Assembly (NCBI GenBank): GCA_001599935.1
Contig: BCIJ01000023.1
Span: 1-64,000 of the forward strand
Direction: 5' to 3'
Source: Holtermannia corniformis
Lineage: Eukaryota; Basidiomycota; Tremellomycetes; Holtermanniales
Length of the DNA stretch: 64,000 nt
The notes under the pieces are model-generated. The model saw only the letters and a list, made by a program, of their open reading frames with translations, had not been told where the DNA came from and did not search any database. The position numbers and the translations under genes were made by a program. Below are positions 1 to 42,553 of this stretch, one piece after another. How positions within the stretch are numbered: the first letter of the stretch is position 1; each line of letters opens with the position of its first letter.

Positions 1-33
1 CCCTAACCCCCTAACCCCCTAACCCCCTAACCC
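1..33. repeat. Telomere repeat, chromosome end
   Basis: About four head-to-tail copies of an 8-base unit, CCCCCTAA on this strand and TTAGGGGG on the other, open the window. The C-rich strand running 5' to 3' from position 1 is the orientation expected of a left chromosome end. A TTAG(4-6) repeat is known from Cryptococcus and relatives, which supports a tremellomycete origin. The array is short, so the assembly probably ends inside the telomere. Confidence 0.95.
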
Positions 34-22915: not shown

Positions 22916-25198
22916 TCAACGCAATGCTGCTCGGATCAGCGCACGATAGCTGCAAGCCACCCGCTTACCTCTGATCACCGTCTCGCCCCACGTGTTCGGG
23001 CCTAAGTCCCGTCAGCTTTGACCGTCGCGCCAGTGATCGTGCTAGCCGTCACTGACCGTCGTAATGCGCGTCGCCCAGCTTGTGTGCGGTCGGCTTGCAG
23101 TTGTCGTGCGTCGGGTTGCCGACACCCTCTACGGCTTCACACCCCTCTTGACAGTGAATGTGGTACTTGACGTCGACCACGCAGTTGCCGAGGGACTTGT
23201 CGTCTGGCAAATGTTCTGGGATGCTGCATGTTCAGTCCACGTTCAATCCCTCGTTGGAGACTCACATAGTCTTCCCAGCTCTGCTGACGTTCGAGCACAT
23301 CGTATTCTTGTGCGGGCGCCCGTCCATACCGATCAGTGGTCTGCAACAGCCAGGCATTGCACACAGCTGTAGCTGTCAGCACAGTCACAGGTGTGCGGCT
23401 GAACTGACTTTCCACGCCTTGGCAAACTGCAGGTCAGCTCTGGCGACGTCGCCAGATTGCATGGCAGGAGCGTCATGCTTGGCGTAGACCGCGCAGACGC
23501 CTGCATGCGGTAGCTTGAAGAGCACCGTGACGAACAGCGGGCGCAAGCTGCATGAGACTTCGTCCTGCGTGAACAGGTACTGGTCATCGTCAGCAAAATT
23601 GTGCAGAAGCGCGTGGGGAAGACACTCACCTTGCGGTACAAGTCCACCCACAGTGCCCTAATCGCGGCAAACACACTGCCAGGACGCGAACACTCGAGCG
23701 CCTTGTTGAGCAAAACGACAGTCGCAGTCCAGGCGGGTCGAATCTGGTCGAACATCCACGCTCCCTGACCGACTTCGTAGTGGTCAACCAGGGCATTGAT
23801 GACGGTGACGTCGTCAATCAAGTCACGCAAACCGTAGCTGCGCTCGATCAACAGCCGCCATACAATTCACGTATGTACTCACCGAGGGCTGTAGCCTTGC
23901 TGGTTTTTGACAAAGTCAATGCGCGAACCCTTGATCCCGTCGGTACCGCAGTAGACGTCCTTGAGCGACTCGGGCTCAGCTTGCCCGGCTCGTGCGCGAA
24001 GATTGAGGCACATCGCGATCCTCTGCTCCAGCTCCCTGAGACTGATCCGCCGGAAGACCTCCAAGTCTAGCTCGGAAAGCTCGTCGTCTTGCGGAAGGAC
24101 GTAGTCCTCGAGAGAGTTCATGAAGCTCGAGAAATCGACCCGGGGAGCGTTGGGGTTGCCGGCCGGTGCTTCCTGCTGAAGGGACGCGACGAGCCTGGGA
24201 AGGGATGCGAGCCGAAGATCGCTGGCGTGCGGCGAGGGCGGTACTGTGTCAATGTGCCGGCGAGGGATTGGCTTTGGAGCTGGGTGCACTTCAGGGAGCT
24301 GCTACCGTCAGCGCGGACAGAACCCAACACACCTCAACACCACTCACCGGAAAGCGACCGGCTTTCACTGCCATCGAACCCAGTCTCCTCATAGCACCGA
24401 AGACAAACTTGCCGCACAGCGCTCGCCCATTCTCATCGCGCACCGTTCTGTCTTTGTCAGCTAAATCGGAACGTATTCGTCCGGTCGCACGCACCCATAG
24501 CCCTTCGAGCTCTGTAGGTTGGATGACTCCAAAGTGTCGGCAGCGATCGTGACAAGGCGGTTGAGTGCCGGGAACAGCTCCTCATCGACGCATTGGCCGC
24601 CGACGATGCCTGCCAGTGGCGCCTTGCCGCTCGCCGTAATCGCTTGCAGCAGTGCGATCTGACTCTCGGTCATGTCCTTGCGCAGCTTGTTATCCGTCAT
24701 TTTCTTGATCTTGCTCTGGAGGACGTCGATATACTGCGTGTGCTCTTGGCGGCGGATCGCGCCTTCGACGGCAGCGACGGTGTTGCCATCTTCGCAAGTC
24801 CACCCCGCAGCGTCAACTCCATGGAGCTCCTTGAAGTGGTACGCGTACTGGGGTGACCAGCGGAAGATCAAGCTCCAAGCATGGTGCTGCATCGCCGAGG
24901 GTGAGTCGGCCTTGGCCCAGTTGATCCCAGTCCACAGCTGCTCGACACAGTGTTGTCGAAAACCGTGACCAGTGACGTCGACTGGAGCGGGTTGAGTCAA
25001 AGGGAACTGTGTCGACTCGGAGATTTGTGTCTCCGCGTAGTTGATCACGGCGGCTTGACGCTCGGGGTAGCCTGCCAATGTCAGATCACAAAGCTCAGAT
25101 CTGAGACTGCACGTACGTCGTCCGGGAGGAGCTGGTAGCCGCTGTTGGACGGGTCAGAGAGCTGTACCGTGACACCGATTCACACGTACAAATGCCAT
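22916..25198 (-). CDS. Subtelomeric family protein A, unknown function, Cys-rich tail
   Basis: A multi-exon gene encoding about 617 aa if it starts at the ATG at 25198. Consistent exons are 25077-24495, 24447-24348, 24298-23883, 23837-23630, 23579-23409, 23372-23266, 23223-23057, 23001-22969 and 22926-22916; their phases all agree and end in TGA. The first two small exons are less certain, and the donor near 25120 is weak. It is clearly a paralogue of gene B: the last five exons have lengths 171, 107, 167, 33 and 11 nt against 162, 101, 167, 42 and 23 in B, with the same phases. Shared signatures are a Pro...Ala...Trp segment before a donor, LCAMPGCCRPL (B: VCNFPDCGRPL), and LGNCVV followed by spaced Cys and His. 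The tail could bind metal. No signal peptide or membrane segment is seen. I recognise no known family. Confidence 0.8.
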
Positions 25199-25569
25199 GA
25201 CGGGCTGGCTTGACACGGGATACGTGAGAACGACGTTAAGAGCGCGCGAGCCTGGGCAACACCGCATCAGCACAGATTGCTCTGAACGGTACCATCCCAC
25301 GTACGGCCAAGTTATCAGAGTGTTGCTGGATCAACTGTATACTCGGGCTATCGACGGCGCTGCAAGGGGCTCAGAGTCTGCTCAACAAAAGATGTTCGAA
25401 GGTCGAACGATGTACCGCACAGATCACCCCCTATCGCGGAAAGGGGGTGGTCGACACCGATCCGCCTTGAGTGGTGGACCTTGGATAGCATCGCCAAGGC
25501 AAGCCCTTCTTCACAGACATGTCAAAAAGAAAGTATTCCGACGATGGCTTTGAAGGCTTCGGGGATGAG

Positions 25570-26086
25570 CTACTCGTACAGAGTAGGCTCGGGAGGGAGT
25601 ACAGGGGCGGGAACGGTGAAAAGGTCTCCCTCTTGAAGTCCGATGAGGTGGGTAGCCGTGCCGAGTGGGTCCACTGGTACTGATCCAGTGTAGAGTACGC
25701 TGAGAGCGCGTGCACGAAAGCTCTACGCCGAAGTCGGGAACGAGCTCGATGAAACCCGTGTCGAGGTCAGCGATAGGATCAGACCACACCTTGAACAGAG
25801 CTGACGCGGTCTTCACTCACGTCTGTAGCTGGTCCGGCGCCGCTATGTATGTACTCGGCTGCATTCAAGCCATCACGCTGACTTGCTATAGTCTCAGCTA
25901 TCTAGACTCGCCGCTCTCGTCAGCACGGTATACATGATTGCACGGTTCACTGACCAGCTCAGGTCGATCCATCGCTGTCCATCGATGATGCGCTCGTCAA
26001 AGCCGAAATCATCATATTGGTTCGTCCGGCTGTTCCGCAAGCTGTAGCTGACCCTCACCAGGAGGCCCGGCAATCTGTGAGCTCAT
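25570..26086 (-). pseudogene. Fragment related to gene D (I), probably broken
   Basis: Minus-strand stretches read FDERIIDGQRWIDLSW up to a good GTCAGT donor, which parallels the exon of gene D that ends ...VSDLSW at a donor. Downstream, a strongly protein-like stretch (LDTGFIELVPDFGVEL) continues as RARALSVLYTGSVPVDPLG to a stop at 25570, but only after a one-base frame change in a TTT run near 25755. The pieces between do not assemble cleanly. The best reading is a truncated, frame-shifted paralogue of the D family; a real short gene with an unrecognised splice pattern is the alternative. It is divergent from gene E, with about 38 bp between the starts. Confidence 0.35.
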
Positions 26087-26124
26087 GCTGCCGGCCGTCG
26101 CGTAGGCTCACCTTGTAGACCACG

Positions 26125-26886
26125 ATGGGCCAGGATGAGACCGAGGTTGAGGTGAGTTGAGCTACTGCTGACGTCTTGTGCCCCATTGACGGCTTTCAGC
26201 GGCTCAAGCAGCAAGTCTCGTCACTCGAACGCCAGCTCAAACAGGCATCGACCTCTTCCTCCTCAGCGCCGCGGACGGATGCGGATCTTGCCGAGCGTGC
26301 CCGGGAGTCCAGCCTAACCAAAACGCTGACGGCGGAAGCCAAAGACTACGCCAGGCAGCTGGTATGTCGTCTCTCACCAATGCTGGAATGCTCTTATACG
26401 CACAGGCGCGACTGTTGCAGGTGCGAGCGGAAGGAGAAGACGATGACCAAAGCACGCTGCGTATTGCCCTCGACCACATCGAAACGCTTCACTTGTACGC
26501 CGCGCAATACTGGGACGAGCTCCAGGAGTCGGCGGTCTTGATGCGCGACGGGCTCGATGAGTGGGGAAAAGAGCGGGTGCGTCACCCGTCTGCAGGTGTC
26601 AGCGAGCTGACAACCCCAAGGCTATGAGCGTCAAGACGTTGCGGGCTGTGCACGAGTACCTTCATGCGCTCGTGTCCGATGCCGAGAAGTTCAACGGTCT
26701 CGCCGAGGACCTTGGTTCTACCCACCTCACTTTCCTCAGCATGCTCGGCGAGGTCCTCGGGAGTGCCCATGTGAGTCTCCCAAACGCTTTGGAGGACGCC
26801 ACTGACAGCGGCAGGAGCACAAGAAGATCGCTCAGAAGAAGGACGCCCCCGGAGCGACAGAGGACGGCGCGAGCGAATCCGTCTGA
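26125..26886 (+). CDS. Small coiled-coil protein (E), unknown function
   Basis: Five exons joined by four introns of 48, 44, 44 and 44 nt give an uninterrupted 193-aa protein. The total exon length is a multiple of three, and all four introns have GT-AG ends; the clearest carry CTGAC just upstream. The protein starts MGQDETEVE, has a Leu/Gln-rich heptad region (about residues 10-30), a Ser-rich linker and then amphipathic helices rich in Leu, Glu and Asp, and ends in a Lys/Glu-rich tail. It has no signal peptide, membrane segment or catalytic motif. The third to fifth exons resemble gene G (a shared LxD...LxEDxG...KKIA pattern), so E and G are probably paralogues. Its stop is only 16 bp before the start of gene H. 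Confidence 0.7.
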
Positions 26887-26902
26887 CCAGGTCGAGGTTG
26901 AC

Positions 26903-27292
26903 ATGCATCGCATACCATACCGTTTCAGACTGGCTCAGCACGCTGAAGCGTACAGCATACCGGAATTGACACGGAAACTAGCTTGGGTGCTAACCTCACC
27001 GGGCGCCGTGACTCAGCAGAGCGATGCACATGATTGATCTCCTAGCAATCCCTTGCAACTCAGCGGCGCACTCTCTCATACGGATACAACGTTTCTGCCC
27101 TCAGCCCGGAGGACCACCGTGATCTCCTCTATGCTACCCTCACTACGCAAGTCTTCGGCGTCCTCGACGATTTTGTGCCCTTTGCGCTCGGTCCGCCTAG
27201 TGGATGTCAGTACGCAATTCGGACTGCACGATGAACGGACTTGAACGCCAGTGAGCATGACGCGACCGCGGGTTGTGATGACGGCGAGTTGA
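26903..27292 (+). CDS. Possible small protein (H), unknown function
   Basis: Three exons (26903-26986, 27046-27205, 27252-27292) joined by GT-AG introns of 59 and 46 nt give a 94-aa protein. The phases agree, and an in-frame TAG just before exon 2 requires the first splice. The middle exon is the convincing part (SPEDHRDLLYATLTTQVFG then an aromatic, acidic stretch), because a similar segment recurs in the remnants at about 14200. The first and last exons rest on splice motifs only. It starts 16 bp after gene E, so it could instead be a downstream part of that transcript. The function is unknown. Confidence 0.4.
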
Positions 27293-27423
27293 TCGACCGA
27301 AGATGAGCGAGCTCGGGCGGAAGCGACGGCATACGGCGGGTTGGTCTTGCGCGAGCGAGGTACGCTTCGATTCGAGATGCCGCCCCGTGATACCGGTCGA
27401 CGGCAGCGGTCGGCTGTATACAG

Positions 27424-27702
27424 TCAGCCGCAGGTCAAGTGAACATTGCTGATGGCTGTGCTGACCTCCCGCGCAGGCTCTGCCTCTCGCAATTTCTTCT
27501 GCGTCTCCTCCTGCCTCACCTGCTCCCTTGGTTGATGCTCTCCACCCGCTTGGGGGTTGTCCGACAGGCTGCTTTTTGGGACTGCGGTCGGGCAGATGAC
27601 CGCGACCAGCGCGTCGGCTCGGTAGCGCCCCATCGAGGGACGCCACCATCCTGCAGCCTTCCCGCTGACGTCCGTGGTCGAGTGAATGTTGTAGCGAGGC
27701 AT
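27424..27702 (-). CDS. Weak single-exon ORF (K)
   Basis: An ATG-started frame of 92 codons with a basic, Trp-containing first half and a Glu/Gln/Arg-rich helical second half. It fills the gap between H and D on the opposite strand. No homologue is recognised, and the plus strand is also partly open here, so this may be a chance frame. Confidence 0.25.
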   Translation of the reverse strand: MPRYNIHSTTDVSGKAAGWWRPSMGRYRADALVAVICPTAVPKSSLSDNPQAGGEHQPREQVRQEETQKKLREAEPAREVSTAISNVHLTCG

Positions 27703-27822
27703 TATACTGTCCTACATAGGTTGGAGGAAGGTGTTGATGGCGATGAAAGCCGGACAACTCGGTGTCCTTTGACGCGTCCCCTGCCACCTTCACTCTGAGC
27801 GACCACAGCAACGATACACAGC

Positions 27823-30432
27823 ATGTCTTCTGTGACTGCCTTCCTTAGCTCTCAGCCCTCAGCCGTTAGTGCGTTTTTGAGCTATGCCTGGAACAATGTG
27901 GTAGACTCAGTCAGTCACACGACGCATCTGGTGTGTTCATTGACGGATCCCTAGGTCAAGAGCCCCGATGACCGTCAACTGGCAAAGCTGCGAATCCAGG
28001 ATTGCGTCAGTGCCATACTGCATTCACCATCAAGCTAACAGCTGCACAGCTCAACTTATTCCGCACTGTGGATACTCAGTGTCTGTCGTGGCTGGCAGAT
28101 GAGATGGTGACGCTGGTCGCCGGTCAAGAAGTGGGCGATGGCTTGAGCGCCGACGGGGGTGTCGTAGGGGACATCATGCGGATCTGGTAGGTCTCTTGCT
28201 CTTTGTACACCTGAGTAGTCCACTGATATGGCAGCTCCGCCATGGGGACGGTAGCCGGTCCCGTCTTGGCACGCTGGGCACTGTCTACAATCCTGGCGCG
28301 CAAAGTCAACACCGACCTTCGGTTGCTTGCAGCTCAGTTCTTCCGTGCATACGCTCCCATCGAGCACGATCTCGTTCACAGCATGGTGACGGATCTTCCC
28401 CAGTGCGTTCCCTATCGAAGTGTAGGACGACGCTAACCCACGCAAGGTTTGCATTCGACACGATGGAGGAGCTGTCGAACCTTGGAGACGTATTAGCCGT
28501 TGTGCAGTGCTACTTGCGGATCGTCAGTGCTTTCTCCGACCCTGTGCAAGTTGCAACACGCCTCTGGCGGCAGGCAGGATCACGACCCACGGCCCTCTTC
28601 CTGTCCATCTTGCACGCTGGCGATGACCCACTGCTCGCTACGTGCAGCTTGGCGGATTACCTCTGGTGCAGCAAGTCAAGGTATGCTTAGTCGCAAAGGG
28701 GCAGGACGTCGCTAACTGCACAGTGGTCGGCTCATCATCGCACACACTGAAGGGTTCCTCGCCCTGGACAGAGGCAGCTCCGCCGTGTCCGATCTGAGTT
28801 GGGTGAGGTTCACGGTTACCACCTCTATCNTTTACTGACAGGCTCTCAGTCTGATCACGGTGTCCAAACCACCACATACCCCGCGTCGACCATGGACGTG
28901 GACGCCAGGATGCCTTGCAAGTCAGACCTCAGCCGCGGCTCAGCTAATGATTTCAGGTGTTCGATTCCTTCGCGACGCCGTGCTTCAACATGCCGTCGAG
29001 ATGTCTACCGAAGGGATTGCTCAGGTGATGCGGTGGCAGGTGAGTCCAGAGCTACATCATACCATTGCGTCTTCTTATCCACGCCAGACTGGGCAGTTGG
29101 CCACGGAACCGCCTGCGACGCCAACGTCCTGGGCTGATCCTCGGCTCACACAACATTCCACTCGCCTCGAGCCGATCAACGCGCATAGTACAACCCAGCA
29201 AGAAACGCAACTCAGCCCTCAATTTGCTCCACTCCCTCCACCCGAGCCGTCGGCGCATCGGCGTCCACGGCCGCCTCAACAGGCTATGCCTCGTCGTGTG
29301 CCGCATCAGCTGTCACGACCATCACCCCCAGCCCTACCGATCCCTCATATTGCTTCTGCTTCATCACAGCCACAGCCACGGGGGCAACAGCTTTCAAATC
29401 CTCCGCCGAGACAGCAACAGCAGGCTTTGCCGCATCAGCAGCAGCAGCAGCAGCAGCAGCAACTGCAACCACCGCCGCAACTGCGACCACCGCCGCAGCT
29501 GCAACCACCGCCGCAACTACAACAGCAACTGCCGCCACAGCAACCGGATCAACCACCGCGTCAACTGCAACGGCAGCAGCCGCAACTGTCGATGCAACTG
29601 CGTCCACCGCCGCAACTGCAACCACCGCCGCAACTGCAACAGCAACTGNCGCCACAGCAACCGGTTCANCCACCGCGTCAACTGCAACGGCAGCAGCCGC
29701 AACTGTCGATGCAACTGCAACAACCGCAGCAGTCGCAGCAGCAACAACCGCAACAGCCCCGTCAACCCACCCCCGTGGACTTTAGTCCTCAAGCTGACCC
29801 GGACCTACACGGCGACCTCGAGGCTTATATCGCTGCTAGTGGCTTGCTGGAGGGCGAAAATGTATGTACAGGCACCGCGCAAGCCCAGCTGACGTCTCCA
29901 GACGGATGTGGCGGTTCCCACCTTGAAGATGGTAGACGTGTTCAAGTTCATGGAGGACAACCACATTAAGCCAGGGGAGACTGAGGAGGTGACTACGCCG
30001 ACGTACAATGGGTTTTACCTGCCACACGACGACATCCTCCGCGGCATCAAGGTACGTTTTTGCGTTTTGAACGGGCTGACGAGACAGAACGCAAGCGACG
30101 ACCTTGAAGATGCGCTCGAGATCAAGCCACAGTCGACCAACCCGCTGTTCCAGTTTGCCACGGTCGCCGGCAAGTCGTACCAGAGACCGACGACGCCGTC
30201 GACTGCGTACTGCTTGTTTATTCTCAAAGTCCGAGACGACCTCGCGGATCTCAAGGCGCAGAAGCGGACCCAAGGCCAAGTGCTGAGCGAACCCATGGCG
30301 GCGGTGCTGCAGGCACTCTCCAAGTACAAGTCCAGGGATTACGGGTGGCTGAAGCGACTCAAGGAGGATGCCAAGAAGGAGTATAAAAAGGGGCAAAAGG
30401 CCGCGTACAACGCGAGGACTCGTGCCAAGTAA
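27823..30432 (+). CDS. Subtelomeric family protein D with Gln/Pro tract, unknown function
   Basis: Eleven exons (27823-27909, 27955-28005, 28050-28186, 28235-28421, 28469-28680, 28724-28802, 28842-28920, 28957-29039, 29088-29861, 29902-30051, 30088-30432) give exactly 727 codons plus a stop with every phase consistent. The introns are 36-48 nt. Residues 1-305 are mostly helical and resemble the remnants at 11930-12870. Residues about 420-530 are a Gln/Pro tract containing a perfect-period duplication. Residues 564-727 form a conserved-looking basic C-terminal domain ending in a Lys/Ala/Arg-rich helix. The fourth intron (28422-28468) has its branch site unusually far from the acceptor but is placed by analogy with the remnant. 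No signal peptide or membrane segment is present. The function is unknown; the low-complexity tract and basic tail would suit a nuclear or scaffold role, but that is speculation. Confidence 0.75.
29481..29714 (+). repeat. 117-bp tandem duplication in the Gln/Pro tract of gene D
   Basis: Two direct copies, 29481-29597 and 29598-29714, each 117 bp (39 codons), encode near-identical Gln/Pro/Leu-rich units beginning LRPPPQLQPPPQL and ending QPQLSMQ. Copy 2 carries both ambiguous bases (29648, 29668), the usual sign of collapsed or mixed repeat copies. The period is a multiple of three, so copy number can vary without breaking the frame. Confidence 0.9.
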
Positions 30433-30714
30433 TGCATCATTTGTCAAATTTGATCTGCTGCAGGTCGTGGCGAAGCACTAGGAGATGGATCTGTCGTCAG
30501 CGCAGCCGAGGCAATTAGACGCACCGTGAGCTTTTGGACAACCATGCCGAAAAAGGGGCAAAAGGCGGCGTACAACGCGAGGACTCGTGCCAAGTGATGC
30601 ATCATTTGTCAAATTTGATCTGCTGCAGGTCGTGGCGAAGCAATAGGAGATGGATCTGTCGTCAGCGCAGCCGAGGCAATTAAACGCACCGTGAGCTTTT
30701 GGACGACCATGCCG
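30385..30714. repeat. 165-bp tandem duplication joining the ends of genes D and G
   Basis: Two direct copies, 30385-30549 and 30550-30714, differ at about five positions. Each holds the last codons and stop of gene D (TAA in copy 1, TGA in copy 2), and on the other strand the last intron, last exon and stop of gene G. Gene D uses the stop in copy 1 and gene G the tail in copy 2, so each gene is left intact and one spare end of each lies in between. Confidence 0.9.
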
Positions 30715-31350
30715 AGAACAATATAGAGCTCGGTTGACTCGATGCCGACGGACCGGACGCAGCGAGGGGCAACGGCATAGTCGGGGCGATTGAGGACACG
30801 ACGAAGACCTTCGATTGTGATGGCAATGTAGTGCTGGCGTCAGCCGAGTTGATATGCAAAGACTTACTCTTTCCTCTGCCCACTGCCGTACGACCGTGCT
30901 GTAGCAGCTCTCACGGTCTTCGGCAATCTTCTTCCAACTTTCTCCCCATTGTTGAAGCGTGGTGATGGTACTGTCCAACGTTTCAGAGCGGGCCTGCAAC
31001 AAGCCGTAGTCCTCGTCGAGCTGCTGGTATTCAGTCTGGGAATCCTGCAGTAGAGCCTGCGAGTCAGCGAGATCAACACCGAGGGCGTACCTGGTGGTGC
31101 TCGGGAATGGCCATGATCGCCTCGACCAGCGCACGGGTGTGCTGGATTTGGACATTGCCGAGCAAGGTGTTTCGGATCGAGATCTGTCGGCCGTGCTCCA
31201 GTCTTTCTTCCAGCAGCACAGCTTAAGTCGGGCGTTGTCACGCTGCACAATGACGAAGCGGACGAACAGTGTCTTGCCAAGCTGGCGGAGCACATTGCTG
31301 TAACAGACGGCTGTCGTGCAGCCGGTCGTCGGACTTGTGAAGATGTACAA
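30602..31350 (-). CDS. Small coiled-coil protein (G), 5' end unresolved
   Basis: Exons 31056-30868, 30833-30690 and 30655-30602 are certain: introns 31057-31090, 30834-30867 and 30656-30689 are each 34 nt with GCTGAC before CAG, and all are phase 0. The protein is Glu/Gln-rich and helical and ends KFDK. In the first exon the reading changes frame near 31220, between ...QRDNARLK and LLEERLEHGRQIS, both protein-like. No short intron explains this, so there is either a one-base error or a real frameshift, and no ATG is certain. It is a probable paralogue of gene E. It is convergent with gene D, with which it shares the duplicated 3' region. Confidence 0.5.
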
Positions 31351-31509
31351 AGATGCATGAACAAAGACGAGCAGTGTCGGAATTAGCCCGCAACTCTAGA
31401 TGCGCCCCGTAATTAGCAATTTGCGCCGCGCCGCGCCGCAGAGCGGCGCGCGCCCGTCATGTAACACTCACTGCCATCTCAACAAGCAGGTGCTGCTTAG
31501 CCTCGCAAG

Positions 31510-34253
31510 TCATGTGATCTCATCGCAATTGCGGTCCGTTTCCAAGCTGGCGACGCGCTCGAGTCGGAGTCGATGCTGTTTGCGCTCGGCACAAACGATT
31601 GTATCGAGGTCGGTGATGGCCTAGCGTTAGCTCGAACAGGCGAGGCGGCGTACCTTTGCAAGATCTTTTGCGTCAACCTTGGCAATGTTGCCGAGCGCAC
31701 GCAGGGCACTCTGCACCTTTTCGTCTTTCGACTTGACATCGGTTTGGTTGCGCTTGATGAGCCCCGCGACAGCCTCGACAGCCTGCGGTCAGCTTGATCT
31801 GTCCGACTCTGCCCACCTTGTGCAAATCCTGCGAGGTCAGCGTGGCCTGGATATTTGCACTCACAATCGCCTTGCCGTCCACATCCATCGCATCTGCGCC
31901 GACAAGGTTGTCCAAGGCGGTTGCGGCAGTGGAAACGGTAGTCTCCAAGCCGTCGCGCTCGGCGGAGAGGTCCTTGACCTGGGATCGTGCGGTTCTGAGA
32001 TCCTTGGCATTGTCCCGCAAGAGTGCGACAACGCGGTCGACGAGCCCGATGAACGCGCTCTTGTGGCTGGTCGCGGCCGGCGTGGCGGCAAACTCATTCA
32101 GCTGCTTGATAGCGTCCTGTTGCTCTTTCTGCAGCAGCTCGCGCTGCTTTTTGTTGCCGGCGAAAGAGTCTTGCACGCGCTTTTCCGACGCGGCAAGCTT
32201 GGTCGCTTGCGTCTTGTAGGCGGCTGCCACCTTTTCGACAGCCTGTTCAAGACTGGGTTTATCGTCGCCGGGCAAAGCGCCAACCGAGGCCGAGGAGCCG
32301 ACCGTCTTGCCGCCCAAGCTTTTCCTGACCGCCTGTCGTCAGCCGAGCTCGGCCCGTACGACTCACAATGATCTCGAGCAAATCTTTACCGGCTTTGCTG
32401 CTGATCCGCGCGGCCGTGACTGCAGCCTCTTCGAGCTCCTTGACGCGCGTCGCCGCGGAGGCCTGTCGTCAGCGTTGCATACCGACCGAACCCACCTCGA
32501 CCTGTTCCACACGATCGGCACGTGCTTGGATCGTCTTGACGCTCTCGATCATGCCTGCAATGAGATTGATGAGACTCGTACAGCTCGCCGTGACCTCGAC
32601 ATTGGCCTGCAGGTCAGCTCGGTCGAAAGGCAAGACCGACCTTGACAATGTCCTCGACAGCCTGCCGTCAGCCGCGTCCAGACGTAGAGACATACCTCTG
32701 GCACGGTCGTCTTTGCAATGTCGATGGGCTGTCGTTAGCGTGCTCGCACAAAGAGTCTTACCTTGACCTTGTCGACGACGCCGCCGAGCACAGTCGACAG
32801 GGTAGCACAGTTGCTTTCGAGGGAGCTCGTCTCGAGCTGAACGACAGCAACATCTCGCGCTTGAAATGCGCCGACGATTTGCCCGCTTGCAGTAGAGAGC
32901 TGGGCAAAGGCACCAGGCGTGTTCCACGACACCTGACGTCAGCCTGCTCGTGAGCACACGACGCACCAGCACGGCATCGACCACCTTTTTTGCCTCGTCA
33001 AAGTCGTCTGTCGCCGTCTGCTCGAGCTCCAAAAGACGGGTGGTCATCTTGCCCAAGTCATCCGTTTTGAACTCGGTGTCGCGCTCGGCCTTGCATCAGC
33101 CCAGTCGTGTAGGCCACACTCACGATGCGTTTCAGAATCTGCGACTTGGCGGCGTCGACTGCAGTGTGGAGCGATGCATCTTGACCACTCGCAGTGACAG
33201 TGGCGGCAACGACATCTTGCAGAGCAGTATACTTGATCTGGCGCTTGTCCTGCAGGTCAGCTCGGTCGCGCGCAGGGTACCCACCAGAGCGCTCTTGAGC
33301 TTGTCGGTGATCCCATTCAGCTCCGACTGCATCGCTTCGGAGCGCTCGGACATTTGCTCTACAGTCTTGGTGTGACGGGATTCGAGCGCCTTGCGACTCT
33401 CTTCCATCTTCTTGATGCGTTCATTCAGGTTGCGCACAACCGTATCGTGTTGTTGGACCGCTGCACGGTACTTTGTCTTTTGATCCGTGCAGGCGTTCTC
33501 TGCAGCCTTGACGCGATTGTTGAGATCTGAAACCGATGCATGCGTTTGCTCCATGCTTTGGATGCGCTGGTTGAGCTCGTTGATTGTGGTTTGATCCTTG
33601 CTGAGCGTCGCCATGACCCGCTCGTTCTCCTCTTCGAGCCGTTTGACCTTGCCCTCGAGCTCGGCGACACGAGGATCCGCGGCAGAGACGGGTTGGCGAG
33701 CCTGTCGGTCAGGCCGGTCACTCTTTCAGACCCACCTCGAGCTCGGCTATCCTCTTCAGACCGTCGGCTTCGGCATCCTCGAGGTCCTGAACGGTCAGTC
33801 GGAACGAGCGACCGCGACTTACGTGGAACCTATACTCGATCTCGAGCAAGCACTCGACGGGATCTTCAAGAAGCACCTCGGTCTACCGTCAGCACGAGCT
33901 AGGGTTGGACGACTCACCGCAGTCATCAGCGAGCAGATGCACGTCTGCTGTCAGTTTGGTCGGGTGAAAAGACCCACCTGCACATCGACGAATTCCTACA
34001 GGTCAGCCCAGTCACGCTAGCTGTACACACCCGACGCAGCCAGTCCGCGTCCTTGCCTGCCCTTGCCCTGTTCAACCGCTCGCCAATGGCCCAGTACGCC
34101 TCCTATACGGATCAGCACGGCCGAGCAAGGGTCACTGACCCTCTTTTCGAGCGCGTCGGCAAGCCCTTGCTCGTCCTCCACAGCCCTGAGCGAACTGTGC
34201 AGGCGAACCAGGGCATCGATATCGGCTTCGCACTCGGTGACAATCTCGGACAT
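31510..34253 (-). CDS. Long coiled-coil protein F with 16 tiny introns
   Basis: An ATG at 34253 starts a chain of 17 exons ending in TGA at 31510, about 730 aa. All 16 introns are 33-37 nt, GT-AG and phase 0, and nearly all have GCTGAC or GCTAAC two to four bases before the terminal AG. The protein is almost entirely helical: an acidic N-terminus, a long Glu/Lys/Gln/Leu heptad region (around LEEENERVMATLSKDQTTIN), then Ala/Val-rich helical blocks that mostly begin with Ala at an exon start. There is no signal peptide, membrane segment, ATPase motif or Cys cluster. It could be a structural or tethering protein. It is head-to-head with gene B. I recognise no family; a general likeness to cytoskeletal or nuclear coiled-coil proteins is all that can be said. 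Confidence 0.75.
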
Positions 34254-34570
34254 GGTCGTTGACCGGGTGGCCACTTTGTTCGCAGCGATCTCTTCCACGA
34301 AAGTTGATCCCTAGTCTAGATCTGTAGTCTACCTCTGTAGTCTACACTCTGTAGTCTACAAGCTATCAAGACGCTTCGTTGACGCTTCGTTGACGCATAC
34401 GGACGCATACGTCGACGCACGGATCGACGACGTGCTAGACGTGCCGGACGTGCTGTGTGCACGCAACGACCACCGTGCTCGATTCCTACTCGTCTAGTCT
34501 AGCCTTCGTACACACTGGGACTGGCCCATACAGGGTACGTACGACGCTCAGAGCAACCGCAGAGTCGCTA
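34254..34570. promoter_or_regulatory. Shared promoter region of F and B with short tandem repeats
   Basis: This 317-bp spacer separates the divergent starts of F and B. Between about 34312 and 34430 it holds three copies of TGTAGTCTAC, two of GACGCTTCGTT and two of GACGCATAC, followed by more CGACG-rich repeats. Such clustered repeats are not seen in the other spacers. They could be binding sites acting on both genes; that role is inferred from position only. Confidence 0.55.
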
Positions 34571-36828
34571 ATGTCGGTAGAAGCGCACAATCTCGACTTG
34601 ACCCGTCTCCGCACAGACCTCATGTCCAAACGTCCCCTCCAGATGCCCAAGGCGTCAGCCGCGAGGCCAAAGGTGAGTGCCAGCACCGCATCGTGGCCGA
34701 CCGTATCTGCAGCGTGTCGCCGCCCTCGCCGCCATTGCCCCCTTCGCCAGACAGCTCGAATCCGAACCGCCTTCGACCCAAGAGCAAGAGCGGATCAACC
34801 CCCTCGAGTTTGCAAAGCCTGGCACGCCCGCGTTCGACAAGCAAGTCAAGAACTGGGTGTTCAAAGGCGAGTTCCTGACGGGCGGCAAGCTGCTCGCGGT
34901 GCAAGCTGCAGTCTGGCCCAAGCTGCTCGGGATGACGGAGCGTGCAACCGCCCACATGATCCAAACGTTTGGCGTGAGCAATCACCCAGACGAGTGGCAG
35001 TGGAGTGACCGCGTCAAGGAGGACATTGAGACCAAGATCCGCAACGGCGAGGCCGCCAAGCACCGTCGAGGCCTGCGGGTCAAGATTGCCGCGCAGTACA
35101 CAAAGCGGGGAGCTGACGAGCGTACAACCGACTACCAAGAGTATCTGATCAGTCTGTTCGGCATCTACCTCTCCCCTGCTTGGTACGGCCCGGCGCAGAT
35201 GGCTGGCTTGGACAAGGACGGCGCCGTGCTCGATCCCGACGAGGAAAAGTGCCCTGTGCTCTCAATCCTGCTCGCAATGGGCAAAGACTTGCTTCAGGGT
35301 CTGCCGCTCCCGCAGTGCCGTGGCTACCTGGCGCTCAAGACACTCGACGGCAAGCCGTTGAACGCCAAGTTTGTGCTCGGCTGCGTTAGCGCTCTGGCGT
35401 GGCTGGGCCATCAGAACTCGGACCTGCTCGAATACGCCGACATCGACGGCTTGTTCCACACAGAGACCCCGGTGGTGAGTGCGCTCGTCTGACGTTGCTG
35501 ACGATCAGAACTGGGATCAACAGAAGAACCGCGCGCTCCCAGCCATCCGACATTGCGCGAAAACCGAGCCGAATGCGCCGTCCGCCGCGTCAAAGGGCGT
35601 GTTCCACAAGAAGATGAGGGTCATCGGCGACAACATGAAGGCGCCAAGCTCGATACCCGGCAAGCACGCTCTCGCGACCGACTTCGACTCGTACATTGCC
35701 TCTGCTCGCGACTACATGAACGGCGCGTTTGACGAAGAGGCGTATGCCGAGGTGTCGGCGAGAGACATGGCCCGACTTGTCGGCACGTCGCTTGGCGTGT
35801 TTGCGAGATCTGGCGAGGTCGGGCCATCGCCGGTGCGGCCGGTGCATGCAAACGTAGAGGCCGACGATGGGGTGGTCGAGGAGGAAAAGGCGGACGGGCC
35901 GGTCAACAAGACGTCTGGGTATGTCCTCGATCACGGCGACGCTGACGCCAGTTTCGGCATGCTCTCATTTGTCGACTCGGTCGCAGCGGTAAACGACCAG
36001 CTCCACGTCCTCGAACAGGCTCTTGGGAGCCGGTTCCCGAGCTCGCTGCGGACGACGTGGCAGCGTACCGTCTCACTCTTGGTCAAATCGACGCGCGCGT
36101 CTCGCCCGGGCACGGTTGCGTGCGTGGTCAAGGCCATGTGGATCCACGAAGAGTTCAAGGTGGGTAGCAAGCAGCAACGAGCCAACCGCTGATGGCAGTA
36201 CATCGCACGCTTTCACAACTACTCGCACGCCCTCCAGCCGTTTTTCACGCTCGTGGCCGCCAAGCTCGCTGTCATGGGCGAGGCGACGACGTTTGCGTGT
36301 CACGCGATTGAGCCAGTGTCGCGCGCAGAGGGCCGGCAGAACCTTGCCGAGGCGTATTCGGTACGTCTCGTTACGCAGCGGCGCTGACGATAGGTGTGCA
36401 ACTTTCCAGATTGCGGACGGCCGCTCGTCAAGCTGGACGGCGAGGCTTGCGAGGTCACGGCCAACACGCACCACTCGAGGGCGGGCACGTACATGTGAGT
36501 TGCTTGGCGTGGCCTGGCTGACATTAGCGTGAAAACCGCGTTGCCAAACGACCACAACCTCGGCGACTGCATCGTGTCGGTGCAAGACAAGATTACCTGC
36601 TACGAGGCGGCCGAGGCGAGCGGCTGTTACGGCGACAAGGTCCACAAGACGTGCAAGATCAAAGGCCACCGCCACAGCAGAGGCGTCTTTGATGGTGAGC
36701 GCTTTTGCGTTACGTCGCTGACGACAGCTCCTCTGCGGCTGATCGAAAAGCTCGTTCGAATCTTGCGAGGTAGGTCGAGCGGTGCAAACCTGGCTGACTG
36801 TGCAGCGCCGCGGTGGTGTGCAGCGTAG
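34571..36828 (+). CDS. Subtelomeric family protein B, unknown function, Cys/His tail
   Basis: Eight exons (34571-34672, 34713-35474, 35509-36159, 36199-36360, 36394-36494, 36528-36694, 36728-36769, 36806-36828) give exactly 669 aa; the introns are 32-40 nt. A second in-frame ATG at 34622 is possible. The N-terminal half (about residues 35-290) is soluble, mixed helical and Trp/Tyr-containing. From about residue 560 comes a Cys/His-rich tail: VCNFPDCGRPL, a THHSRAG segment, LPNDHNLGDCIV, then spaced Cys and His (CYEA, SGCYGDK, HKTCK, HRHS). The same tail is found in gene A and in the remnant at 12920-13930. Metal binding is plausible but not shown. I see no transposase triad, helicase or polymerase motif, and I assign no family. 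Confidence 0.85.
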
Positions 36829-38979
36829 CGGTATCAAGTATGCATCTGTACTATGAGCTAAATGGCGTAAAACACCGCTTGGCACGACTCGACTTTTCGT
36901 CGGCTGTGAGCATTATACAAACGCAAACTTGTTGAATTCGCGAGCGTCGTAGACTTCCCTAGCTGGCCTGAAAAGATGACGGTGCAGAGAGGGAGGTATC
37001 AACGCGCAAATCGAAGCAAAAGTCGCGGCAAAAGCCACCGTCTTTCGGGCTGTTTAGCAGCGGATCAAGTAATCCGACCCGTTTCCGTCTTTCAAGACGG
37101 TGTAGCCATCGGATCGACCACTCCAAAACGGCCGTCGATAGCACGCCAGTGTAAGATTTCGATTTTTCACCGACGACGGCGCAAAGAGGTTTGCCACGGA
37201 GGTTTCGGGCGGCGACTGAAACGCATCGGCATGTGATTGCGACATTGACTGGCATTGACAAAGGTGTCCTGGCCGAAATGTTCGGCCGCTGGCGAATGCA
37301 ATGCTGCGTGCCGACGTAGACGCTGATGGTGGGACGGCGATCATCGACAAGTGGTCGAACGAGAAGTGGTTGGCGAACAAGTCGTTGCAAGCTACAAGCA
37401 CGTCAGCCTCGCAGTGGCGATAAACATCTCGCTCCAGTCGGACACACCAGATCATCTCGCTCGCAGCCAGAGTCTTCAGCCCAAGCATCCCTAGCCAGGC
37501 TCCATACTGACCACAAGGCAGCGTAGGCTGTCGTGGCGGGCGAGGGAGAGCGGTTGTCTGGACGGCTTGAACGCGCGGGAGGTGAAGAGGGACATAGATG
37601 TGCTGGGAGGTGTGCTTCGATGTTGAAGAGGTACGAGTCAGTCGATCCAAACGGACGACCGAGTTCGCCCTCGACGCTGTCGCAGTGCTGTGATCATCGA
37701 GTTGACGTCGAAGGACGCCTGTGGATCGTCAGGCAGTCGGCAAGTCGAGCACTCCCTCGTGAACTCGCAGAGTGCGGTGTGACGCCGTTCTAGCCCGGCT
37801 TTAGCACGATGCAGTCGAAGCTTGTTCCAGCTTGTCAATACCGACGCTATCGTCTTGAGCACTAACCGGCTATTCCTCGTCAAGCGTTGCGACGGGACAC
37901 TTTGCACTCGTTTGCTATCGCATGAGCGAGCTCGTACACTGGTGGAAACGAATCGGTCCCAGGCCATCAGTCGGTGCATGTGGCGGTCGCCGTCTAAGAA
38001 TCTGATGGGATGGACGGCCCTGCTTTGACGTTGCGGCTTGTGGTGGAAAGAGTTTGAGATGAGGATATTGGCCTGTACAAGGTCGACATCAGCCCACGGG
38101 ACCATGCTGTAGATTGCTGTCAACGCTCTGTTTCGACGTGAACAGGCTCTCGATGTAGAAGGGTGGTCTCGACCTGTTGGCCATAGACCTGGCAAGCACT
38201 CACCGCACCTGCTCCGGCTCCTCGCAACATCCCTCAACAACGATCCTCGAGATCCGATCATACGATATGCGTGAGGTCCGAGCGGTCCAACGTCTGCGGG
38301 TTGTCAGCACCAACTACGCAGCATACTCTACCGTGTCCACGCACTGTATGATACCCTGATGCGAGCCTGGAGACGAGGCAAGTGTAAGAGTTGATATCCG
38401 AGTAGCTGGTCGAACAACGCAGCACGAGCTGGCGTCGAGCCAAGCGAGGACGCTCTTGATCTTGCGTCTTCACCTCGAGTGCTGTGCTGATCTAGTGGAG
38501 TGAGCAAGGCACTGCGAACAGGATGGTTAGCTAGAGATCGCACAGGCGTGTTCGACATCCACGACGCAGCCACGATGCATCATGTCCACAGCGACACCGC
38601 CGCGGCAACATCCGTGAGTAACTCCGTAGTCACCGAGCTCACGATGCAGGCGGCCGACCCTATGAGCTCGGCGGCAGCTCGACAGTGTCAATCGCGTACG
38701 GCGGGTGCAATGGTGGGTTCGCAACGTGTCGAGATCGTGTGGATCGCAAGTCTCGGGGGATGAGTGGGAGGCAAGGGTTGTTCGAGACGCGGTCAAGCGA
38801 TAGTCGATTCACGGCCGTGGTGGCTGTAGTGGCGGTTACAGGCGAGCATCATACCAGCGAGACGAGACGATCGCGGTCCCACAGACGTGTCGTGGTCTTG
38901 TCGGTCGATATGTTCTCCGCATGAGTGCGCGGCGGATGCGTGAGGCTGTATCGAGGTGCATAGCATGATCTCTGCAGGG
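36829..38979. other. Spacer without a supported gene
   Basis: About 2.15 kb between gene B and the amidotransferase pseudogene. Minus-strand frames at 37054-37650 (198 codons) and 37638-38261 (207 codons) are open, but they lack splice-linked neighbours, motifs and a plausible composition. This marks the inner edge of the A-to-B block. Confidence 0.5.
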
Positions 38980-39850
38980 TCAGCCTTGCCCAACCACGCC
39001 CCACTCACAGATAAACTCACAGATAACGCCTAGCAACACGTTCCAGATGGCCCAGCCGAGCCTCCCGTCGCTCTCGGCAGTTACATCCTTGACCCTTTGC
39101 CTGGCTTCGAGCTCGGTCGCGGCGTCAAACACGCCCAGCTCGGCGCTCGACGATCAATCAGGTGCGCGACGAGGCGCGGGGTGAACTCGGGATGGCCTTG
39201 GAGGCTGAAGATGTGGGTCTTGCCGGTTGGGTAGCGGTGTACCATGCCTTGCTTTGCGTAGCGGGGAGAGGAGCCGAGGTGGGAGTTTGGACGTGACGAC
39301 GTCGCGGTGCTGGCGAGTGTTAGTGCGAGCAGAGAGCCAGGCCAGACCCACCATCTGCTGGATAGACTGCCTGTCAGCTCAATCATACACTATCACCACC
39401 CGGTGTCCCCACCCAGCACCTTGACGCCCTCCTCGCTCAGATCGACACCATACACACCGACCTCCCATCCGTCGCTCCTCGCACACTGCCCGCCGAATGC
39501 CAACGCCAATTGTTGATGGCCAAAGCAGATGCCAATCTGCTTGACATGCGCCGTCTCGGTCGCGAGCGTGCGCAGAAACTCGCACAGGGCGGGACAAACG
39601 TCGAGGCAGGGTCGTAAGCCGTGTGTGCGGCACTGTCAGTGTCGGACGGGGAGGCCTGCCTTGGTGAGCATGACGGCGTTGTAGCTGCGTTTGGATACTC
39701 GCGATCTCGAGCTCGACATCAGGCCGTGGGTGGGGATACGACTTGAGCGAGCTCTCGAGCAGCGTCTGGAACACTGGCAGGTCTGCATCGTCCATGAGCG
39801 GATCGTGTCGACGCACAGGTGGACGGTATCGATCCGACTGTCAGCTGGAT
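38980..39850 (-). pseudogene. Class I glutamine amidotransferase pseudogene
   Basis: The type 1 glutamine amidotransferase fold of the GMP-synthase-like fungal family is readable in order on the minus strand: an N-terminal region with LPVFQTLLESSLKSYP, VMLT, HTAYDP, the nucleophile elbow IGICFGHQQLALAFGG (catalytic Cys), MHRDVV after a short intron, and IFSLQGHPEFT (catalytic His and Glu), then a tail with DGRLGWAIWNVLLG. Consecutive blocks lie in different frames at no fewer than four places (near 39800, 39610, 39280 and 39140), with no introns that could explain them. Neighbouring genes have clean frames, so this is a decayed gene and not a region of bad sequence. The intact enzyme would have hydrolysed glutamine to supply ammonia. 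Confidence 0.75.
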
Positions 39851-40675
39851 GATGCTGATCCACTCACTGGCGTACGCACCGTCTTGGCTGTGATTGTTGA
39901 GATCGCAGGGTGCGGTATAGCGGTGACATGACCTTTCACCGAGTGCAAGGATACACTGATGCGTCTACTGACAGTTGACTGACAGATGGTCACTCTCGCC
40001 TAGCATCCCGGCAGCACACGCCGACTCCAAGCCGACGTCCATCCGGCATCGTCAATGCATCACAAGGTCGGCACCAGCTCGCCAATCGTAGAGACCTCTG
40101 CCCGAGCTGGCCAACTGTGGATCGACAGTGTCGTGAGTACTTGCTCCAGTCGATCCCCTGCCGTCGCATCCCTGCACCATCCCCTCACCACGCCGAGTTC
40201 GATTCACGCCCACTGCACTCGACTGCACTCGGCCGACTGCACGTCAAACGCTATCCTTGGGCTGTGCGTAGCTCTGCTTCACCTTGGGTGCGGCCCTCGC
40301 CAAGGCTGCGCACGGTCCGTCGCACTGGGGTTGTCTGACCATTCGCATGCATCTTTCGCGCCGTTTCTTGATACCATCGTGTACGCCTGCCTCTTCTCTT
40401 GCGTTCTGTACCACCCACCGCGTCTCTCGCTGCACCCACACGATTCTATACCGTGTTTGATCACCAGCTGTCCTAGGCCCGCTCATTCAATTCCGCATAC
40501 AGCAATTGACTTTGACGTTTCACCGGGCGCGTGCGATTGTTTGTTGTTTGCCAAGCGACAACGACCATCCTCAAGAACCGACACCCGACCGCACCACACT
40601 CGCTCAGCACCCACACTCGTTCACGCCCTTGACGATCCTCCAACTGCTCTTGATCACCCACTACACGCAACCGAC
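39851..40675. promoter_or_regulatory. Upstream region of the LysM gene
   Basis: An 825-bp spacer with no supported gene, lying upstream of both the LysM gene (plus) and the amidotransferase pseudogene (minus). It becomes rich in C and T tracts towards 40675, as is common just upstream of fungal start codons. Confidence 0.4.
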
Positions 40676-42553
40676 ATGCTCGCCGCTGTCCTTTTCGCCG
40701 CCTTGCCCCTTTTGACCGGTTAGTATCTCGAGGTGGGCTAGTGTTTCTGGGTTTGCGAGTGGTGAGCTGTGAGACTGCGGTTGGATGTGGATGCTGCACG
40801 GGATGTGGATGCTGCGACGGGACGGCGAAAGGGGGTGGTGCGGATGCAGGTGTCTTGTTTCCTGCTCGTCCGCTGGCTGCAGTGTACGTAGACTGCATAA
40901 ACTGCAGTCTGTTCTCGACTTGCAGCCGTGCATCGCGCACAGCATCAATCAGGACGCAGACAATGCAAACAATGGCATCGCCGCTCGGTCCTTTCGATAG
41001 GGGTCCGTGCGCCTTGGCGTGAGAGCCGGTACCAACCTCGGCCTGCAGCTGGGCTAGCTACAGTCAGACGCTCGTGCCCGCTTTGACGAGGCTGCGGAAC
41101 ACAGTCGTGATAAACGGCATGTGCGATAGCCACCGGGAGCTGGCAAAACGAGTTCCTGCGGCTGCACTCTATTTACCGTGCAAGATCAAGTGGCAGTGGC
41201 GAGCGCCATTGAAGCTGTACGAGGTCGACACTGTATTTACAAAAGCCTCGCCATCATCGGCTGTGAGAGCACCAATTGCCGACAAGGCATCTGCAACTGG
41301 GACACGGTTGCACGCTTGGCGCCGAGTGCACCATATAACCGCATGTAGGTCTCGAGAGCGCCGTCTTGCAGCGCGCTGGGGAATTAGAATGCCAACCCGT
41401 CGATCTGTACGCAGACTCGTGACAAACGCGCCAGGCAGTGATGACTGTCAAGGTGCTTGAGCGCATCAACCGCGTCCTTGAGCAGATCCAGATAGTACAG
41501 CTGACCAGCTGCGTCACTCGGCTGCTGCTCATGATCGGACGATTGGGTCAGATCATCGCAGGGTGGTATCGGCAGGCTAGCCGGCGGCTTCTGCCAATCC
41601 GGATGCGACGTGTCGACGGCCACTTGTATCAACGTAGGCTTGGCACGGTCCATGATGCACCACGGGGGGCAAGCAGCAAACAGCTGGCCGGTATCGTGAA
41701 AGCCGAGTAGCTACGCGATCTAAAGGTGCTATCGACCACTTGTTGACGAGGTCTAGTTATTAGTGGAAGGTACAGATCAGCTCAGAGCAGCCGCGGCTGG
41801 CGTCCGCCGCCGTCCCTTCCGGACCAGCCGCGTCGAGATAGACCGAAAGGCAGTCAAACGGTGCATTCTCACCGTGAATGACCAAGCTGAGCCGCGATTG
41901 GCTGTATTCGGACACGGCGTCCAGCGCTACTGCCGGCCCGTGCTCCGCCTGCTTCGCCTGCCTCCACCAAGGCTCGCTGATGAGGGCCCTTACCCTCTAC
42001 TCAACGTTCGCCAGCCCACGCTAACGCCACAGGTGCCCTCGCTGGCGACTGCACCCGCTCGGCCGTTGTCGAACAGGGCGACTACTGCGACACGATCTGT
42101 AAGTGACCCCCCTGCTGCACCGCTGACAGCAGCGCGCAAATACGGCGTGTCGACGTACCAGCTCGCCGTCGTCAACGACGCTACCATCTCGGCCAACTGC
42201 GACAACCTGCCCGTCAACGGCACCGTCTGCCTCGGGTTGACCGGCCACGACTGCACCAAGGTCTACACGGTCGTCGAGGACGAGTGAGTCGCGCTGACAC
42301 GACGGCGCTGACGTCAGTACGTGCGACTGGATCCAGCAAATGTACGGCATCTCCAACGAGACGCTGTGGAGCAACAACCCGCAGATTGACGCAGCGTGCT
42401 CCAACATTTACATCGGCGAGGTCCTCTGCGTCGACACGGCCAGCTACACGTACCCTTCTGTCGACTCTGCTCTCTACGAGGTGGGTTCGACTCGCATGAC
42501 GGCGCTGACGGCAGCAACTCGCCTACACCTACCTCCCCTACTGCGACGAGTGA
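40676..42553 (+). CDS. Secreted protein with two LysM domains
   Basis: Exons 40676-40718, 42033-42098, 42130-42283, 42318-42480 and 42515-42553 join in consistent phase to give 154 aa. Exon 1 encodes a signal peptide (MLAAVLFAALPLLTG). Two LysM domains follow, one from about residue 22 (VVEQGDYCDTI...) and one from about residue 70 (VYTVVEDDTCDWIQQMYGIS...), each with the Cys pairs usual in fungal LysM proteins and a closing LCVD or similar. LysM domains bind chitin or chitin oligomers, so the protein probably acts outside the cell, in the wall or as a chitin-masking effector; which of these is not visible from sequence. The first intron is 1314 bp while the other three are 31-34 nt. The gene ends 54 bp from the convergent transcription factor. 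Confidence 0.85.

What the first reader, a model, noticed from the sequence alone, without database searches (positions are those of the whole stretch)
22916..36828. Undescribed multigene block bounded by two divergent paralogues
Genes A and B, clearly paralogous, sit at opposite ends of a 13.9-kb block and point outwards. Between them lie D, F, E and G, which I cannot place in any known family and which have clean exon chains. Inverted paralogues at both ends, tandem duplications inside and decayed relatives nearer the telomere suggest a unit that amplifies in subtelomeres. It could be a mobile or formerly mobile element, or an expanded host gene family. No transposase, recombinase, polymerase or helicase motif was found, so mobility is only an inference.
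Basis: partly seen in the sequence, partly recalled or inferred. Interest (0 to 1): 0.85.

Follow-up and report, generated by a model that had tools for sequence, protein, structure and literature searches.

The report
Subtelomeric cluster of orphan fungal genes
Near one chromosome end of a fungus, in a stretch with almost no other genes, sits a small island of apparently intact genes of unknown function; diverged and mostly broken relatives lie at other chromosome ends of the same genome, so this looks like an old chromosome-end gene group and not a proven mobile element.

Summary
A (22916-25198, minus, 605 aa, 11 exons) and B (34571-36828, plus, 669 aa, 8 exons) are uninterrupted, outward-facing paralogues, 28% identical, with five shared intron positions. 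Between them lie D (676 aa, Q-rich), F (719 aa, coiled coil, rough model) and weaker models C, E and G. The flanks 1-22900 and 36829-42300 gave no gene model of note.

The window is the telomeric end of contig C23 of a 20.2-Mb genome. A/B relatives occur on 6 of 55 contigs, in all six within 37 kb of a contig end. A D relative lies beside an A/B fragment on C36. Coiled-coil genes diverge from the A/B relatives on C12 and C4, as F does from B, though F itself resembles them only weakly. So the genes tend to recur together at contig ends, as diverged, partly broken copies.

No terminal inverted repeat, no mobility domain in the seven models and no A/B remnant nearer the telomere were found. Best reading: a lineage-specific subtelomeric gene module spread by exchange between chromosome ends; its molecular function is inferred, not shown.

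The parts
1..33 (.). telomere repeat, 4.1 copies of CCCTAACC (TTAGGGGG on the other strand)
22916..25198 (-). gene A, 11 exons, 605 aa, no internal stop; C-terminal zinc-binding-like pattern C-x4-C ... H-x2-C-K
   Evidence: exon model with GT-AG introns; family alignment
25519..26886 (+). gene C, helical/coiled coil; 193 aa from 26125, 5' part uncertain; diverges from A
   Evidence: found only here by search at E <= 0.1
27076..27633 (-). G, weak open-frame pieces, may not be a gene
28104..30432 (+). gene D, 8 exons, 676 aa (further 5' exons possible); helical N part, Q/P-rich middle, helical C part
   Evidence: homologue of the C part on C36
29477..29732 (+). 117-bp tandem repeats inside the Q-rich part of D
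30385..30715 (.). 165-bp tandem duplication, two copies 97% identical, overlapping the 3' ends of D and E
30602..31114 (-). gene E, 4 exons, 121 aa, weak model
31510..34253 (-). gene F, 18 exons in the model (some very short), 719 aa, coiled coil; diverges from B
34571..36828 (+). gene B, 8 exons, 669 aa, no internal stop, paralogue of A

Best explanation
The block is a cluster of lineage-specific subtelomeric genes of the host fungus. Its core is a module: an A/B-type gene transcribed away from a coiled-coil gene (F type), with a D-type gene nearby. Shown: gene structures, paralogy of A and B, intron sharing, restriction of A/B relatives to contig ends, and A/B relatives with a D-type or coiled-coil neighbour at three other contig ends. 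Inferred: copies spread by duplication and exchange between subtelomeres, where most then broke, while this end kept an uninterrupted pair. Also inferred: A and B carry a C-terminal zinc-binding domain, and with the coiled-coil protein and the Q-rich D protein they form a nuclear, nucleic-acid- or chromatin-associated complex expressed from divergent promoters. The molecular activity is not shown.
For: A/B relatives on 6 of 55 contigs, all within 37 kb of a contig end; P <= 6.5e-5 if the six were placed at random, with the distance chosen after the fact; three of those six ends carry telomere repeats (C4, C15, C23). Five introns shared by A and B in phase and within one alignment column; 0 of 100,000 random placements did as well. 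In the 8-sequence alignment, read by eye, C-x4-C is in 6 of 8 rows and H-x2-C-K in 7 of 8. D homologue beside an A/B fragment on C36: z 14.6, 0 of 300 shuffles. The coiled-coil genes diverging from the A/B relatives on C12 and C4 are homologous to each other: N parts z 12.3, 0 of 300. Host-like GC3: 0.72-0.79 for A, B, F and the 3' part of D, 0.75-0.80 for five genes at 42.6-57.5 kb. Third codon positions differ most and second least in both pairs tested; pN/pS 0.77 and 0.76.
Against: F of the window resembles the C12 and C4 coiled coils only weakly (F 1-140 with C12: z 3.1, 4 of 300 shuffles; with C4: z -0.2, 169 of 300; profile comparison probability 2.6%, P 0.018), and coiled coils match easily. 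The D likeness on C12 rests on its N part only (z 4.3, 0 of 300); its C part fails (42 of 300). The N parts of D and its C36 relative do not match (34 and 240 of 300). Genome searches do not link these genes: the C36 D relative finds only itself, the C12 coiled coil finds only C12 plus a weak C37 hit. C4 has a kinase-like gene where D would be expected. Both fold predictions were too poor to assign function. pS is near saturation, so the selection signal is rough.
Confidence: 0.6

Rival explanations
1. The block is a decayed or domesticated large mobile element or endogenised viral segment that targeted subtelomeres; A and B would be end-proximal element genes.
For: Outward-facing paralogues at both ends here, and an A/B gene plus a decayed, oppositely pointing A/B piece on C15 (1054-2102 minus, about 6900-7240 plus); neighbours recurring at other contig ends; no homologue found for B in Pfam, NCBIfam, PHROGs or the protein search.
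Against: No terminal repeats; no mobility domain in the seven models; introns with ordinary splice signals, five shared between A and B; host-like third codon positions; relatives only 20-57% identical to B; no match for B in viral contigs with the six short patterns used.
Confidence: 0.15
2. Only the A/B genes are a real subtelomeric family; D, F, C, E and G are unrelated neighbours gathered by random subtelomeric rearrangement.
For: F, both conserved parts of D and C give no second copy in direct genome searches, apart from a marginal F hit; the C36 D relative and the C12 coiled coil likewise find no relative elsewhere at E <= 0.1; the C4, C15 and C43 neighbourhoods differ from the window.
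Against: D relative beside an A/B fragment on C36 (z 14.6) and homologous divergent coiled-coil neighbours on C12 and C4 (z 12.3).
Confidence: 0.2
3. The genes are accessory products of the subtelomeric OrsD-RecQ helicase genes and move or recombine with them.
For: Helicase matches on 10 of 55 contigs, all within 26 kb of a contig end; on C4, C36 and C43 the A/B genes lie on the inner side of the helicase; an OrsD-like piece lies between A/B pieces on C43.
Against: No helicase match on C23 (the window's contig), C12 or C15; helicase pieces on C2, C10, C21, C28, C30 and C36 are 97-98% identical to the C43 query (others, on C4 and a second C36 copy, 64% and 52%) while A/B copies are far apart.
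Confidence: 0.05

Closest known systems
Subtelomeric unknown-function gene sets with RecQ helicases, as reported for Agaricus bisporus var. burnettii (PMC7473861, passages read)
   Same: Genes of unknown function concentrated at chromosome ends; RecQ helicases at chromosome ends of the same genome.
   Different: Here a recurring neighbour group (A/B, coiled coil, D) is described; the passages read report no such module. No sequence comparison was made.
Telomere-linked helicases of Ustilago maydis, UTASa and UTASb with OrsD (PMC10532341, passages read)
   Same: OrsD and RecQ-like genes near contig ends of this genome too.
   Different: The block itself holds no helicase; the A/B profile has no hit in the helicase reading frames of L032 and L033.
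Clusters of unknown genes in subtelomeres of Sporisorium scitamineum (PMC4466345, passages read)
   Same: Clusters of unknown-function genes at the edges of subtelomeres.

Membership tests
Lineage-specific subtelomeric gene family | several paralogues in one genome | tested here: met
Lineage-specific subtelomeric gene family | confined to chromosome ends | tested here: met
   6 of 6 contigs within 37 kb of a contig end; telomere repeats seen at three of these ends, the other three are contig ends only
Lineage-specific subtelomeric gene family | no relatives outside a narrow lineage | tested here: inconclusive
   no hit for B (E <= 0.001) or the A/B alignment (E <= 0.01) among 7997 scored candidates each; the set holds some fungi, but relatives sharing no 5-residue words would be missed
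DNA transposon | terminal inverted repeats | tested here: not met
   (1500 bases outside and 300 inside each border; exact matches only)
DNA transposon | target-site duplication | tested here: inconclusive
   exact borders unknown; longest direct match 13 bases, as in controls
DNA transposon | transposase, integrase or recombinase gene | tested here: not met
   no such Pfam hit in B, F, D, C, E, A and G models; the uncertain 5' part of C was not scanned, and an unknown enzyme type is not excluded
Telomere-linked helicase element | RecQ-type helicase gene | tested here: not met
   no match on contig C23
HMG-box protein (idea for D) | HMG-box fold at the C-terminus | tested here: inconclusive
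   no Pfam or PDB sequence hit; single-sequence model with mean pLDDT 64

The most novel reading that the evidence does not exclude
The A/B - coiled coil - D group is an undescribed, self-contained selfish or domesticated module of fungal chromosome ends, whose A/B proteins bind DNA through a new zinc domain and help it persist there, with this window holding an uninterrupted doubled copy.
Probability: 0.12. Interest if true: 0.75.

Novelty: new member of a known kind. Interest (0 to 1): 0.42.

Why it matters
Chromosome ends of fungi hold many unknown genes, usually listed one by one. Here several unrelated orphan genes seem to keep company at separate chromosome ends, so they can be studied as a group, and the A/B alignment gives a seed for finding the family elsewhere. 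If the group has a role in telomere or subtelomere upkeep, or is selfish, gene removal would test it directly.

Tried and rejected
HMG box for the D C-terminus: suggested by eye, not borne out by Pfam or PDB sequence searches or by the fold, a low-confidence three-helix model; the 50 Foldseek rows and 50 VIA-align rows shown name no HMG box and are mostly common helical arrangements. A/B N-terminal fold: mean pLDDT 45, not searched further.

C and E as a second inverted paralogue pair, and the start of C as a relative of F: not supported by shuffles (37 of 400 and 249 of 400). L031:288-1161 was first taken as D-like, then read by eye as an A/B N-terminal piece of C43 followed by an in-frame stop. 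L027:2444-3590 as D-like: not supported (z 1.4 with the D C part, 2.7 with the D N part); its last residues are a short repeat found on other contigs.

Viral origin: no viral-contig match for B, no PHROGs hit for A or B. A/B alignment against PDB: best E 0.38, no sensible relation. B against NCBIfam: none.
Full report
What was checked. The window is contig C23, bases 1-64000, of a 20,211,851-base genome in 55 contigs, and it starts with telomere repeats. Spliced genes with short introns, and WD40 and FAD-binding genes further in, fit a fungus; no tool names the species. The telomere unit TTAGGGGG is recalled as a basidiomycete form; a paper listing shows that word in Cryptococcus and Tremella papers, which I did not read.

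Genes. A simple splice-aware gene finder plus hand-built exon chains give A, B, C, D, E and F; G is weak. All introns of the A, B, C and D models start GT and end AG. F comes from the gene finder alone and has exons as short as 12 bases, so its model is rough. In 1-22900 the strict run gave one model of 24 bases (score 0.8) and the relaxed run none above score 7; in 36829-42300 neither gave any. The block is therefore a gene island in a gene-poor subtelomere. The finder is crude and was trained on this window, so genes may be missed.

A and B. They align over 593 positions with 164 identities and share five introns in phase and within one alignment column; 0 of 100,000 random placements did as well. 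The A/B profile built from 8 sequences (four partial, one with X for a stop, one joined over a frame break) finds pieces in 6 of the 11 stretches fetched and in the window, but those stretches were chosen because of earlier hits. The whole-genome searches (counts there are lower bounds) place the family on C4, C12, C15, C23, C36 and C43: 6 of 55 contigs, all within 37 kb of a contig end. At most 20% of the assembly lies that near an end, so P <= 6.5e-5 for six random placements; the distance was chosen after seeing the data. C4, C15 and C23 carry telomere repeats at that end. I found complete open models only for A and B; the copies on C4, C12, C15, C36 and C43 look interrupted or truncated to my simple methods.

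Neighbours. On C36 a D-like gene with its own stop is followed on the same strand by a 5'-truncated A/B piece; its likeness to the D C part has z 14.6, 0 of 300 shuffles (16.9; BLASTP of the pair E 1e-5), while the N parts do not match (34 and 240 of 300). On C12 the A/B relative (minus) is followed by a coiled-coil gene (plus) and then a gene (minus) whose N part resembles the D N part (z 4.3, 0 of 300), while its C part does not resemble that of D (42 of 300). Read backwards, the window has the same order and strands: B, F, (E), D. On C4 the A/B relative is also followed by a diverging coiled-coil gene, homologous in its N part to the C12 one (z 12.3, 0 of 300), but then by a kinase-like gene. 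F of the window against these: F 1-140 with C12 4 of 300, with C4 169 of 300; F 250-719 with the C12 gene 0 of 300 (z 4.8), with its second piece 52 of 300, with the C4 second piece 12 of 300; a two-sequence profile gave probability 2.6%, P 0.018. So the arrangement recurs, but homology of F is only suggested. Direct genome searches with F, the D C part, the D N part and C find no second copy apart from a marginal F hit on C6 (E 0.076). The C36 D relative finds only itself, and the C12 coiled coil only C12 and a weak C37 hit (E 0.25), so these links rest on pairwise comparison and position.

Homologues elsewhere. B and the A/B alignment have no hit at E <= 0.001 and 0.01 among 7997 scored candidates each. 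Pfam has nothing for A, B, D or G (the 3' part of D alone gave two sub-threshold matches) and only weak, sub-threshold coiled-coil-type or chance matches for F, C and E. PHROGs (A, B) and NCBIfam (B) have nothing, and PDB shows no relation. As a control, the helicase of C43 finds 12 proteins, some from Schizosaccharomyces octosporus and Paraphaeosphaeria, so some fungi are in that protein set. The search depends on shared 5-residue words, so distant relatives are not excluded.

Mobility. No terminal repeats were found, and no mobility domain in the seven models. Composition and introns are host-like. The copies are diverged: identity to B in the alignment is 20-57%. Helicase pieces at the contig ends behave differently: those on C2, C10, C21, C28, C30 and C36 are 97-98% identical to the C43 query, although C4 and a second C36 copy are at 64% and 52%.

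Mechanism. The most likely reading is a subtelomeric host gene module. A/B have a helical N part (a low-confidence model) and a C-terminal pattern, C-x4-C in 6 of 8 rows and H-x2-C-K in 7 of 8 (read by eye), which I infer to bind zinc. F is a coiled coil; D is Q-rich with a helical C part (low confidence). I infer a nuclear complex with nucleic acid or chromatin, expressed from the A-C and F-B divergent promoters; nothing here tests this. Spread by exchange between chromosome ends is inferred from location and decay. pN/pS of 0.77 (A-B) and 0.76 (C12-C4), with the third codon position varying most, fits loose protein constraint, but pS is near saturation.

Literature. Six paper searches were made. 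Passages were read in three papers (PMC7473861; PMC10532341; PMC4466345): subtelomeric helicases and unknown gene sets are known in basidiomycetes. I saw no description of this module in these searches, which do not cover most subscription papers.

Verdict. A, B and D are good gene models, the A/B paralogy is real, and the co-occurrence at contig ends is partly shown. Mobility is not shown. The finding is a new example of a known kind, of moderate interest.

Noticed in passing
L032:5676-9494 (C43) and nine other contigs (C2, C4, C10, C21, C28, C30, C32, C36, C53): OrsD plus RecQ-type helicase matches on 10 of 55 contigs, all within 26 kb of a contig end. Their middle part shows residues like those of tyrosine recombinases (R..E, YHK, R, H..Y) in most of 8 aligned sequences (the reading as a recombinase is recalled, and the 60 PDB rows shown matched the helicase part).
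   Followed up: partly
L027:6900-7240 (C15): A decayed second A/B copy on the plus strand facing away from the A/B copy at L027:1054-2102, like A and B in the window.
   Followed up: partly
window 14456-14701: An open frame similar to a five-exon model at L030:5477-6126 on C43 (E 1.2e-4), perhaps a relic of another subtelomeric gene.
   Followed up: no
L031:6160-6500 (C43): A fragment like the OrsD domain lies between A/B pieces (E 7.2e-5, below the curated cut-off).
   Followed up: no
L029:3876-6018 (C4): A kinase-like gene (Kdo/APH Pfam hits) and an unknown neighbour next to the coiled-coil gene of C4.
   Followed up: no
L032:1110-1260 (C43), with matches on C15, C21, C32 and C33: A short repeated DNA stretch rich in TTACGGG-like words, seen and as a shared peptide end.
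   Followed up: no
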